This document shows, in pieces, positions 24,403 to 32,254 of a stretch of DNA of 64,000 nt. Numbering within the stretch: the first letter of the stretch is position 1; each line of letters opens with the position of its first letter. Below the pieces are notes generated by a model, which saw only the letters and a list, made by a program, of their open reading frames with translations, made no database searches and had not been told where the DNA came from. A program made the position numbers and the translations under genes. The stretch is from the NCBI GenBank assembly GCA_958299035.1, contig CATQJL010000223.1, positions 69,237,006 through 69,301,005 of the forward strand. The letters run 5' to 3'. This DNA comes from Cylicocyclus nassatus. Lineage: Eukaryota; Nematoda; Chromadorea; Rhabditida; Strongylidae.

Positions 24403-25386
24403 ATGTCAAAGGAAAGAAGATCAAGCATGTCAGAGGAGGAAGAAGAAAGTAAACCAACTACGTCACAAGAAAGAAGCGCAACACCTTCTATCTCGGACAA
24501 GGAGCTTCAAGAACAGTTATACAAAGCCTGTAAGATACTGGGAAACCGATTGGACAAGTTCTCAGGCTCTGGGGAAAAAACTCTTGAGGAATTCCTGAGT
24601 GAATACTCGGAAGTGACGCATGAGCTTGCTATCCCGAACCTGATTTCGCAGAAATTACTACCACTCTACCTGACAGGTGGAGCGAAACTGAAGTACCAAC
24701 AGATCCCGAATCGAGAGAAGATACCTTGGAAGGATTTGGTAACGGAGCTAGCCAAGCGAATGAAGAATACCTCTCTTCTCAGCAATATCCGAGATGAGCT
24801 ACATAATATGACGCAAGGAAAGGACACCGTGGGAGAATTCGCCAAAAAAATTTACAACAAAACGAAGATCGCTTTCCAGGGACAAGGACAACCACTCATT
24901 AAGCAGATGGCCATTGATTTCTTTATCAAGGGCCTCAACCCCGAGATTAAGAAAGCGGTTAGAAGACTACCTGACACGGACGAATTCGATGAGATAGTAT
25001 GCAGTGCAGAAAAGGAATCTCGCATCCTGGAACAGGAAAGGAAAGAAGACAGAGACGCCCTTCAAGCCGTCAATGCTCTTCTTATGGATGAGAAAATCAA
25101 TCGGCTTGAGCAGCAGTTGAGTCAGATGAAAGCAACACCACGACAGAAACCTACCAGTGACCAGGATAGAAATAAGTTCAGGCAGATACAGAGGACACTG
25201 CGACCTATCCAGAATCCTCCCTTCTTCGGCCCGCGAGGATATTATCCCCGATACCCACCTTTCCGTCAACGTGCACTCCCATTCTACAATAGCAGAATGT
25301 ACAACAATAGATTTCCACCAGTACAAGGAGAAAACCTTATGGCTATGGAGCACCATCATATCCACAATATAGACCCCTTCCGATAA
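24403..25386 (+). CDS. gag: Gag-like structural protein
   Basis: 327 residues from ATG 24403; the frame is also open upstream to the acceptor at 24292. Role: particle-forming nucleic-acid-binding protein. The centre matches the retrotransposon gag (capsid) pattern: KTLEEFLSEYSEVTHEL, LTGGAKLKYQQIP, WKDLVTELAKRM, GEFAKKIYNKTKIAFQG, FIKGLNPEIKKAVRRLPDT. A coiled-coil-like Glu/Lys segment follows. There is no CCHC zinc knuckle; instead the C-terminus is rich in Arg, Tyr, Pro and Phe (FFGPRGYYPRYPPFRQR), which could bind nucleic acid. It ends in TAA 81 bases before the ATG of the glycoprotein frame. Confidence 0.85.
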   Translation: MSKERRSSMSEEEEESKPTTSQERSATPSISDKELQEQLYKACKILGNRLDKFSGSGEKTLEEFLSEYSEVTHELAIPNLISQKLLPLYLTGGAKLKYQQIPNREKIPWKDLVTELAKRMKNTSLLSNIRDELHNMTQGKDTVGEFAKKIYNKTKIAFQGQGQPLIKQMAIDFFIKGLNPEIKKAVRRLPDTDEFDEIVCSAEKESRILEQERKEDRDALQAVNALLMDEKINRLEQQLSQMKATPRQKPTSDQDRNKFRQIQRTLRPIQNPPFFGPRGYYPRYPPFRQRALPFYNSRMYNNRFPPVQGENLMAMEHHHIHNIDPFR

Positions 25387-25466
25387 GTGATGCTCCAGCT
25401 CCCGCAACTCCCAGCACCTTCGCGAGAGGAAGGATCAACCCTCCAGGGATTCACTTATTGTGTATC

Positions 25467-28890: not shown

Positions 28891-31800
28891 CCTCCATCAC
28901 AAAACCATACGAATAGGACCAGAAGATATAGACCTCGTGCCCATCAATTATATCACACTTGCGGATATATCACCTTACGAGGTACGGCTCGTCAACGACA
29001 TAGTACTGCCTAGACGGACTAATAACATAGTGGAAGCCCATATCGATGGACTAACATGGCCAAGATGTAAAGACTTCCTTATTGAAGATAATCTACGACC
29101 AATGGATGACATTTTTGTCATCAGCCGAGCTCTCGTTACGCCAAACCCAGACGGGACTTGTTACATTAATATCCTGAACCCGTCAATGACTAATATCTCG
29201 CTCCGACGGAGATTCAAAGTAGCGATCGCATATCCTGCATGCCCATCGGAAGTTTCAGTGCTGCAATTAGAAATTCCATCTATTCAGTTTCCGGGAGATC
29301 CGGCTCGTCCTTCTGTTGCATACGTCAAAGATATCCCTCTGGACGACAGCACAAATGACGACTTCAAAATTCCACCAGAAGCAGACTGGGAGAACCGGTT
29401 GCCTTTGTTTCCAGTCATTCCGGAACCCCAGAATTATGATATCGCCAATGAGATCGATCTATCCCACTCTAACTTAACGAGGAAGCAAAAAGACCAATTG
29501 CGAGACATCATTAGATATCATAGCAATGCTTTCGTTGGACCAGATGGACATCTTGGACATTATAGAGGAAATATTCGCCATCGAATCGACCTCGTCGAAA
29601 ATGCAACAATACCAGCCAGGAAGATCTATCGAGTGCCCCTTGAAAAACGGCAGGAAATAGAGAAGCAGATAACTCAGATGTTGAAAGATGGAATAATCAG
29701 GGAATCCACATCTCCGTTTTGCGCGCCGATCGTATTGGTGAAGAAACGTGAAGCAAACACCTGGCGCTTCACCATCGACTTTCGCGGACTTAATGCCATT
29801 ACTAAACCACAGCAGTCTATCCTACCTAATATCCAGGATATTATTGATTTATGTGCTAATCAATGCCTTTATTCGTCCCTTGACTTTCAACAGGGCTTTC
29901 ATCAGATACCACTGGAAGAAGAACATTGCGAAAGGACGGCATTCGCATGCTTATTGGGAGCATTCGAGAACGTTCGCATGCCGATGGGACTGAAAGGAGC
30001 CCCTGCCACCTTCCAAAGAATAATGGATGACTTCAGAAAGTATTTGAAGGCAAGAGTCTTCATTTATATTGATGATCTCATTATTACTTCGGCAAGCCCA
30101 CAAGAACATCTGGGAGATATCGATGAAGTACTTGGAAATATTGAAATTATAGGGATGAAGTTAAAGGCATCCAAATGCGAGTTTGCGAAGGAAGAGATCA
30201 AATTTTTAGGATTTATCCTAAGCAAGGAAGGAATAAGACCAAATCCCGAAAAGACCAGAGCAATCGATCAATACCCGCAACCGACGAACCCTACGGAGGT
30301 TAAGTCTTTTCTAGGCATGTGCTCGTTTTTCCGGAGATTTATCCATAATTTCGCCACGATCGCCGCACCACTCATTGCGCTAACAAAGAAGAATGTCCCC
30401 TTCAACTGGACATCGCAATGTAAGGAGGCGATGGAACATCTTAAGCGAGCCCTAACAACGGCACCTATTCTTGCAGCACCACGATTGGGTAAACCTTTCA
30501 TTATTGAGATTGATAGTTCGGCGAAAGGCGTTGCCGGAGTTCTCAAGCAAGAACAAGGAGGTTTAGAGCGCGTTATCGCTTATGCGAGCCGCATTCTAGA
30601 TAAACATGAAGCAAGATATCCGGCAATAGAACTTGAAGCCTTAGGATTGGTTTACGTGGTGCAGAAGTTCCGACCATACATAGATGGAGCGAAATGCACG
30701 ATCATCACGGACCATGCACCACTCAAAGCACTACTCCATCGAAAAGATCTTACTGGGAGATTGGTTAAATACCAAATCGTGCTGCAGGAATTTGATATCG
30801 ACATTATCTATCGCCCAGGAAAGAAGAATGCAGTATGTGATGCGCTATCTCGACATTTACCGCCACCTGTAAACGCTATCACGTCAATAGGGAAGGATAA
30901 CCTTCAGCTAGATGCCATAAGGAAGGAACAAGACGAATGTACATGGATTGCAGGAACTGAGATGGCACTGGCAAATAACGAAAACACCGCGAGGTTATCC
31001 AATTACCTACTTATAAATGATATCCTTTACAGATTGCCAAATTTTCTGTATCAAGACCCTCAAATAGTATTACCGGAATCGTCTCAAATTAAGAACGACA
31101 TCATCGCTTTGGCACATCAATCCCAACTAGCGACAGCACATTTGGGAATCAGCAAAACCCATGCTGCCGTCGAGAAGATCGTTATTTGGAATCACATGCG
31201 CAGGGATATCGCAAGTTTTATCAATGCATGTGAGCTATGCCAAGCAAGGAAGGATCCGAGCGCTTATAGGATAAGAAAACCCTTGTGCCCGTTCGAAATA
31301 CCGTCCAGGCCATGGCAACGAGTACATTCAGATGTGATCGGCCCTCTACCGCTGACATTGGATGGAAACAAGTACATTATTGTTTTCATAGATTCTTTTT
31401 CCAAATATATCGTCGCGGAACCAATACCTGATCAAAAGGCCCACACCACGTCACGCATCTTTATCACCCGCCTTGTAGCCAGGTTCGGACTACCACAAAT
31501 ATTGGTGACAGATCAAGGATCGAACTACATGAGTGAGACCTTCCGTACCCTTCTACAGAATTTACACGTCCAACATCGCACAAGTACCCCATACCACCAT
31601 CAATCAAATGGACAAGTGGAACGCGTTAACCGTACATTAGAAGAACAAATCGCTATCGCTATCCGTCAACACAGTGATGAATGGGATTACGTTCTTCATC
31701 TTGTGGTTCACGCTTGCAACAGTGCGGAAAACGCCTCAACCAAGTTCACGCCATTTTTCCTTGTCCACGGCTGCGATCCCACAAATATCTTCCACCTGGC

Positions 31801-32254
31801 GCTTCAGCTACCAACGAAGAAACATGTGGATACAGAAGATTATGTGGGCAATCTTGTCAAAATTCTGAAGGATACGTATCAAAATGTCTATTCGAACTTG
31901 ACAAAGGCACAGGATCAACAGAAACGTCAATACGATCTGAGAGCAAGGACCCCAAAGACACAATATCAGATAGGGAAGAAAGTTTGGATAAGGAAAGATG
32001 CTGGACATAAACTTGCGACACGATTCGAAGGACCTTTTCCAATTATTGCTGTTGATCTACCTAACATCACCTCACCATTTTGGACGGCAAGCGCAAAAGG
32101 ATTATTCATGTCGATCGGACAAAACTACATAAATAAGACCTTTCCAGAGCAAGAGCAGAAGACAGAAGATAAAAGAAGAAGAGAAAGAAAAAAGAGAAAA
32201 AAAACAAAAATTTTCCCAACAACTATATCCATTCCTTTCTTTGTAATGTTGTAA
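28636..32254 (+). CDS. pol: Pol: protease C-terminal part, RT, RNase H, integrase
   Basis: The frame is open from before 28592. Numbered from 28592 (1220 codons), it holds the protease C-terminal half (TTANGTLIQLSG...VPLLLGSDFI), the reverse transcriptase with FTIDFRGLNA and YIDD at 492-495, and the RNase H with EIDSS, ELEALG and TDHAPL (about 636-706). The integrase has an H2C2 finger (HQSQLATAHLG...CELCQA, about 838-885) and the D-D-E core (HSDVIG about 911, VTDQGSN about 971, GQVERVNR about 1008). A GPY/F-like segment, RFEGPFPII, lies near 1145, and the tail is Lys/Arg-rich. Catalytic residues are all present. It is offset by +1 from the DSG-containing frame. Confidence 0.93.

What the first reader, a model, noticed from the sequence alone, without database searches (positions are those of the whole stretch)
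24403..32254. Envelope-like genes sit between gag and pol and run in frame into the protease
In retroviruses and in insect Ty3/gypsy elements with env, env follows pol. Here the order is gag, signal-peptide glycoprotein (25467), mucin-like glycoprotein with a membrane segment (residues 592-624 of the frame at 26518), and then, with no stop, the protease active site DSG (28621). RT-RNase H-integrase follow. Translated as read, pol would hang on the cytoplasmic side of a type-I membrane glycoprotein. That implies a different way of packaging or releasing the enzymes, or protease-mediated separation at the membrane. Order and fusion are direct reading; the functional meaning is inference.
Basis: partly seen in the sequence, partly recalled or inferred. 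Interest (0 to 1): 0.9.

Follow-up and report, generated by a model that had tools for sequence, protein, structure and literature searches.

The report
Retroelement with envelope inside its polyprotein
A virus-like jumping element of parasitic roundworms carries an envelope-type membrane protein in the middle of its long protein, between capsid and enzymes, instead of at the end where such elements are said to carry it, and relatives in other worms share the arrangement.

Summary
The order is real and conserved. The window holds an 11.9-kb Ty3/gypsy-type LTR element (21948-33830; LTRs differ at 1 of 649 positions). Its glycoprotein frame runs without a stop through a membrane segment into the protease DSG. 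Of 20 related proteins, all nematode where named, 12 reach the membrane segment and all 12 continue into the protease. Most are gene models, but P0005 is 1613 codons on a 4842-nt contig, so gag C-terminus to RT is one ORF there. Corrections: the 'two glycoproteins' are one precursor, split here by frame changes; gag is fused too, through a signal-like segment; in this copy RT lies in another frame than the DSG. The ectodomain weakly matches Pfam's Monjiviricetes fusion glycoprotein (10 of 13 members, best E 2.9e-6; printed scores below cut-off). Likely mechanism (inferred): one Gag-Env-Pol chain threaded through the ER membrane and cut by signal peptidase, a furin-like enzyme and PR. ICTV puts Metaviridae env downstream of integrase; ten paper searches showed no Gag-Env-Pol order. 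No RNA, structure or same-genome copies were available.

The parts
21948..22596 (+). 5' LTR, 649 bp, TG...CA; preceded by TTAC (21944-21947)
   Evidence: identical to the 3' LTR but for 22452; ends and duplication read
22597..22616 (+). primer-binding-site-like stretch directly after the 5' LTR, begins TGG
   Evidence: read; the tRNA was not identified
24280..25386 (+). gag frame (capsid domain; no CCHC knuckle)
   Evidence: Retrotrans_gag E 5.7e-8; P0009 20-259, 63% identity; no CCHC
25452..25502 (+). hydrophobic signal-like segment before the glycoprotein
   Evidence: translation; 7 of 8 relatives that show this junction have a hydrophobic stretch there
25503..26306 (+). first part of the glycoprotein (GP1)
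   Evidence: P0009 317-623, 51% identity over 25344-26288; P0005 to 26306
26282..26416 (+). glycoprotein stretch around the basic, furin-like site, in another frame in this copy
   Evidence: P0009 621-665, 53% identity
26404..26766 (+). glycoprotein after the basic site, before the mucin stretch
   Evidence: P0002 154-274, 39% identity; P0010 49-165, 45% over 26416-26766
26767..27585 (+). Thr/Ser/Pro-rich mucin-like stretch
   Evidence: translation; measured in relatives; lies between the conserved blocks
27586..28296 (+). second conserved ectodomain part with weak Monjiviricetes_fusion match and a dibasic site
   Evidence: E 0.0063, 15 bits, cut-off 27; P0009 997-1353, 49% over 27586-28638
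28297..28374 (+). membrane segment
   Evidence: translation; hydropathy peaks at the same place in 12 relatives
28375..28620 (+). linker from membrane segment and first part of the protease up to the active site
28621..28629 (+). protease active site DSG, in the glycoprotein frame
   Evidence: (RVP E 0.014, below cut-off)
28640..32254 (+). rest of protease, reverse transcriptase, RNase H, integrase (frame 28583-32254)
   Evidence: (Ty3 Gag-Pol E 8.6e-93)
33182..33830 (+). 3' LTR, followed by TTAC (33831-33834)

Best explanation
A young but frame-broken copy of a Ty3/gypsy-type endogenous retroelement of strongyloid nematodes. In relatives the envelope glycoprotein is encoded between gag and pol as part of one continuous polyprotein: Gag - internal signal-like segment - GP1 - basic site - GP2 - mucin - ectodomain - membrane segment - PR - RT - RNase H - integrase. 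Shown: gene order, frame continuity in relatives (without introns in P0005), hydrophobic segments, mucin, basic site, 12 ectodomain cysteines shared by three relatives, Ty3-type pol. Inferred: the hydrophobic segment after Gag starts translocation; signal peptidase frees Gag in the cytosol, as capsid is separated in alpha- and flavivirus polyproteins (recalled); the ectodomain is luminal and cut by a furin-like enzyme; the membrane segment stops transfer; PR-RT-RH-IN emerges as a cytoplasmic tail and is released when PR is crowded at the membrane. One mRNA would thus bring Gag, Env and enzymes to one membrane without a spliced env message. The glycoprotein is probably (about 0.65) a fusogen captured from a Monjiviricetes-like RNA virus.
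For: 12 of 12 proteins that reach the membrane segment continue to DSG, of 20 examined. 7 of 8 that show the gag/glycoprotein junction have a hydrophobic stretch there. P0005: 1613 aa on a 4842-nt contig. Linker between membrane segment and PR 33-54% identical with 4-9 gapped columns, mucin 24-31% with 50-70. Env and pol trees share a six-member clade and three pairs. Pol closest to Ty3 among solved chains. PF24664 matched by 10 of 13 members, best E 2.9e-6. No good splice donor at the gag end or acceptor at the linker in the window.
Against: No RNA, protein or structure data. Relatives other than P0005 are mostly gene models whose joins may be predicted. P0012 lacks the hydrophobic stretch, and the P0019 and P0020 models skip parts of the glycoprotein. 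Printed PF24664 scores are below Pfam's cut-off, and PDB searches gave no viral protein. In the pol tree P0006 groups with P0002/P0011, in the env tree with P0005. The window copy itself has frame changes in spite of near-identical LTRs.
Confidence: 0.6

Rival explanations
1. The env block is continuous in the DNA but used by splicing: one RNA without env gives Gag-Pol, another gives the glycoprotein, so little or no Gag-Env-Pol chain is made.
For: Some gene models leave out the hydrophobic segment or jump from GP1 to RNase H (P0012, P0019, P0020). Cer1, a nematode Ty3/gypsy element, makes a spliced message (PMC10309623, abstract and passages).
Against: No donor-like site scoring 6 or more at 24900-25520 and no acceptor-like site at 28250-28640 (a crude test on one broken copy). 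The linker is conserved.
Confidence: 0.25
2. Same layout, but the glycoprotein is not a virus-derived fusogen; it is a mucin-like adhesion or assembly protein of other origin.
For: PF24664 scores printed are below cut-off; no viral hit in PDB or in the third protein search.
Against: The same part of the family profile is matched in relative after relative (10 of 13 members); 12 conserved ectodomain cysteines in three of three proteins; basic site and membrane anchor as in viral glycoproteins.
Confidence: 0.2
3. The frame changes in the window are programmed frameshifts that set the ratio of Gag, Env and Pol.
For: The frames overlap near each change.
Against: Relatives read these places in one frame; one change lies inside PR just after the active site.
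Confidence: 0.04
4. An unrelated host gene captured once, or a mis-assembly joining a glycoprotein gene to a retroelement.
For: Only one copy of the element is in the window.
Against: Homologous env at the same place in records of six named nematode species and in unnamed ENA records; env and pol trees share clades.
Confidence: 0.01

Closest known systems
Metaviridae (Ty3/gypsy), including env-bearing errantiviruses
   Same: LTRs, 4-bp duplication, gag, PR-RT-RNase H-IN order; pol nearest to Ty3 among solved chains
   Different: ICTV profile: env, where present, is encoded downstream of integrase (PMC7879559, passages); here env lies between gag and PR in one frame. Insect errantivirus Env is F-type (PMC12992720, passages)
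Atlas virus and other nematode BEL/Pao elements with Env (Tas)
   Same: Nematode endogenous retroelement with a captured fusogen and one long polyprotein (PMC9094657, passages); the same paper reports that the Tas env has weak similarity to herpesvirus gB (class III)
   Different: Belpaoviridae; order Gag-Pol-Env with Env last; Atlas Env is class II
Anakin (mosquito Pao element with chuvirus glycoprotein)
   Same: Glycoprotein related to that of a Monjiviricetes virus (chuvirus; that chuviruses belong to Monjiviricetes is recalled) within an LTR element (PMC7642597, passages)
   Different: Pao family; a position between gag and pol was not described in the passages seen
Cer1 of C. elegans
   Same: Nematode Ty3/gypsy element, no stop between gag and pol (PMC10309623, abstract and passages)
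   Different: The passages name GAG, POL and CERV as products, no envelope
MDG1-group elements with sORF2
   Same: Ty3/gypsy elements with an extra membrane protein and cell-to-cell passage (PMC11952523, passages)
   Different: sORF2 is short and lies upstream of gag, in some Lepidoptera downstream of pol; not fused
Alphavirus and flavivirus structural polyproteins (recalled, no call)
   Same: Works like: capsid first, then an internal signal sequence, then membrane glycoproteins in one chain
   Different: Unrelated; no retroelement enzymes on the tail of the glycoprotein

Membership tests
Ty3/gypsy LTR retroelement (Metaviridae) | LTRs with target-site duplication | tested here: met
   649-bp LTRs, TG...CA, one mismatch, TTAC on both sides
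Ty3/gypsy LTR retroelement (Metaviridae) | Pol order PR-RT-RNase H-IN with Ty3-type domains | tested here: met
Ty3/gypsy LTR retroelement (Metaviridae) | PBS after the 5' LTR and polypurine tract before the 3' LTR | tested here: inconclusive
   PBS-like stretch at 22597; nearest purine run of 9 or more ends about 120 bases before the 3' LTR
Ty3/gypsy LTR retroelement (Metaviridae) | CCHC zinc knuckle in Gag (common, not in every member; recalled) | tested here: not met
   absent in the window and in the gag parts of 9 of 9 relatives tested
Env-bearing Metaviridae (Errantivirus-like) | env downstream of integrase | tested here: not met
   env between gag and PR in the window and in relatives; definition from PMC7879559
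BEL/Pao (Belpaoviridae) such as Atlas | BEL/Pao-type pol and Env last in the polyprotein | tested here: not met
   pol matches Ty3 among solved chains; Env is not last. No BEL/Pao tree was made
Class III (Monjiviricetes-type) viral fusion glycoprotein | match to Pfam PF24664 above its cut-off | tested here: inconclusive
   10 of 13 members match at E up to 0.1, best 2.9e-6; all scores printed are below 27 bits, the score of the best member was not printed; precomputed annotation lists PF24664 for 4 of 11 proteins
Class III (Monjiviricetes-type) viral fusion glycoprotein | class III fold and fusion loops | not testable with these tools
   structure prediction switched off

The most novel reading that the evidence does not exclude
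A lineage of nematode retroviruses replicates through one Gag-Env-Pol chain threaded through the ER membrane: host signal peptidase separates Gag from Env, and the polymerase is brought into particles as the cytoplasmic tail of the envelope protein rather than as a Gag-Pol fusion, so that enzyme packaging is coupled to Env.
Probability: 0.4. Interest if true: 0.92.

Novelty: new variant of a known kind. Interest (0 to 1): 0.78.

Why it matters
Env after pol is treated as a standing trait of env-bearing LTR elements; ICTV states it for Metaviridae (PMC7879559). A lineage spread over several strongyloid nematodes breaks it and keeps gag, env and pol in one frame. That gives a natural test of how Gag, Env and Pol ratios, enzyme packaging and protease activation can work without frameshifting or a spliced env message. 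Next to Atlas virus in the same host group it is also a second, different route by which a retrotransposon seems to have gained a viral glycoprotein.

Tried and rejected
Rejected: chance open frames; a gene captured once; two separate glycoproteins; programmed frameshifts (relatives read one frame); BEL/Pao membership.

Led nowhere: PDB profile search with three glycoproteins (7 weak matches up to E 10, none viral; the two best fall in the mucin stretch) and phmmer with window pieces (3 weak matches; none); gag against PDB (best E 0.081, not convincing); viral-contig scan (56 pattern matches, none a relative); Rfam and tRNA scans (none). The third protein search with the three-row profile A2 (7999 candidates scored, capped) gave 7 proteins, nematode where named, and no virus, so the donor virus is not identified. 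A tblastn of three relatives' N-termini against the window found no convincing 5' exon. Ten paper searches gave no printed Gag-Env-Pol order in a retroelement; this rests on their listings and on the passages I opened. The library holds few preprints, and I recall (no call) that preprints on env-bearing Ty3/gypsy elements across animals exist. The window's own genome could not be searched, so copies of the same species, selection tests on DNA and copy number are missing.
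Full report
What is there. The window carries an LTR element from 21948 to 33830. The LTRs are 649 bp, start TG and end CA, and differ at one place. TTAC flanks both sides (sequences). A PBS-like stretch follows the 5' LTR. Inside are a gag frame (24280-25386), glycoprotein frames (25467-26375, a piece around 26282-26416, and 26398-28890) and a pol frame (28583-32254). Pfam finds Retrotrans_gag, RVT_1, RNase H and integrase. 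The nearest solved chain to pol is the Ty3 Gag-Pol protein, E 8.6e-93. The frames are far longer than chance: longest 1223 codons, against a maximum of 229 in 300 Markov sequences.

Is the order special to this copy? No. Three protein searches brought 20 distinct related proteins, nematode where named: Ancylostoma ceylanicum, A. duodenale, Cylicocyclus nassatus, Cylicostephanus goldi, Nippostrongylus brasiliensis, Heligmosomoides polygyrus; two are unnamed ENA records. Three of these species were looked up and belong to three families of Strongyloidea. One search examined all 20. Twelve (P0001-P0011, P0014) reach the membrane segment, and all twelve continue without interruption to the protease DSG; the other eight do not reach the membrane segment. 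These twelve are from A. ceylanicum, A. duodenale, C. nassatus, C. goldi, H. polygyrus and an ENA record. Eight proteins show the start of the glycoprotein after gag; seven have a strongly hydrophobic stretch exactly there, P0012 does not. The P0019 and P0020 models skip parts of the glycoprotein. Most of these are gene models, so their joins could be predicted introns. P0005 is different: 1613 codons on a contig of 4842 bases, so its gag C-terminus, signal-like segment, whole glycoprotein, membrane segment, PR and start of RT are one uninterrupted DNA frame.

In P0002, P0005, P0006, P0007, P0008 and P0009 the corresponding stretches are one chain with a basic, furin-like site between them; P0012 has no clear furin motif at that place. 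The window copy changes frame between gag and the glycoprotein, within the glycoprotein near that site, and in PR just after the active site (tblastn map). Relatives read these places in one frame, so they are lesions of this copy or errors of the assembly. The near-identical LTRs point to a young insertion, which makes several lesions mildly surprising. I do not say which changes would mend it.

Anatomy of the glycoprotein, from P0009, P0007 and P0005. Hydrophobic segment; about 260 residues of GP1 with eight conserved cysteines; basic site; about 140 residues; a Ser/Thr/Pro-rich mucin-like stretch that diverges strongly (24-31% identity, 50-70 gapped columns); about 170 residues with four conserved cysteines; a dibasic site found in all 12 proteins that reach it; membrane segment; a linker of about 70 residues (33-54% identity, 4-9 gapped columns); PR. 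A conserved linker is what one expects if it is translated in one chain with both neighbours; it is not proof. The gag part lacks a CCHC knuckle in the window and in 9 of 9 relatives tested.

What the glycoprotein may be. Pfam's Monjiviricetes_fusion family is matched by 10 of 13 members of alignment A1, best E 2.9e-6, always in the same part of the profile, about positions 342-432 of 653 (the truncated P0001 only 393-428). All scores printed in those calls are below Pfam's cut-off of 27 bits; the score of the best member was not printed; precomputed annotation lists the family for 4 of 11 proteins. The members are related, so they are not independent. PDB searches gave no viral protein. I therefore call a viral, class III-type origin likely (about 0.65), not shown.

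History. Trees of the last ectodomain part and of PR-RT (13 rows each) share the pairs P0001/P0003, P0009/P0010 (87/91 in the env tree) and P0007/P0008 and a clade of P0002, P0005, P0006, P0007, P0008 and P0011. They disagree on P0006, which groups with P0005 in env and with P0002/P0011 in pol, where it sits on a long branch. The window's place is not firmly resolved in either. Env and pol have thus mostly travelled together since before these lineages split, and the lineages occur side by side in Ancylostoma.

How it probably works. Inference: Gag is made first; the internal hydrophobic segment targets the chain to the ER; signal peptidase releases Gag; the ectodomain is luminal; the membrane segment anchors it; PR-RT-RH-IN forms the cytoplasmic tail and is cut free by PR once crowded in an assembling patch. 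The main rival is that splicing removes env from part of the RNA. The window shows no good donor near the gag end and no good acceptor near the linker, but that is a crude test on one broken copy.

Against the known. ICTV's Metaviridae profile places env downstream of integrase (PMC7879559, passages). Atlas virus has one Gag-Pol-Env polyprotein with Env last and class II (PMC9094657, passages). Anakin is a Pao element with a chuvirus glycoprotein (PMC7642597, passages). Cer1 has no stop between gag and pol, and the passages name no envelope product (PMC10309623, abstract and passages). The MDG1 sORF2 lies upstream of gag (PMC11952523, passages). Troyka elements encode no envelope (PMC12440569, passages). 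Ten searches of the paper library listed no description of a Gag-Env-Pol order in a retroelement; few preprints are held.

Verdict. A real, conserved and unusual architecture: new variant of a known kind. The layout is shown; the mechanism is inferred.

Noticed in passing
23405-24010, minus strand: An antisense frame of 201 codons in the leader between 5' LTR and gag, with two zinc-knuckle-like Cys clusters. Its end resembles the C-terminal tails of the Cylicocyclus models P0006 and P0011 (E 3.9e-6 and 4.4e-7), which there follow pol on the same strand. No Pfam match. Gag itself lacks a CCHC knuckle.
   Followed up: partly
22512-22829 and 24292: A short open frame after the 5' LTR and an acceptor-like TTTGCAG just before gag suggest a spliced leader exon; tblastn with the relatives' N-termini did not confirm it.
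   Followed up: partly
33063-33181: No polypurine tract next to the 3' LTR; the nearest run of 9 or more purines begins at 33053.
   Followed up: no
about 29000-29400 (connector between PR and RT): In the relative P0003 the stretch between PR and RT weakly matches dUTPase (E 0.002, 18.3 bits, cut-off 22); one of 13 members of A1 matched at E 0.085. The window's place is estimated.
   Followed up: no
8918-10062 minus and 19237-20377 plus: Two near-identical inverted copies of a Penelope-like element (name recalled): RVT_1 E 1.7e-9 and a GIY-YIG match below cut-off (E 0.0035) in the first copy.
   Followed up: partly
42800-45562, minus strand: A 920-codon frame with CCHC knuckle and integrase zinc-binding domain, a fragment of another LTR retroelement.
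   Followed up: partly
15711-16214: A frame with a BED zinc finger (E 1.2e-6).
   Followed up: no
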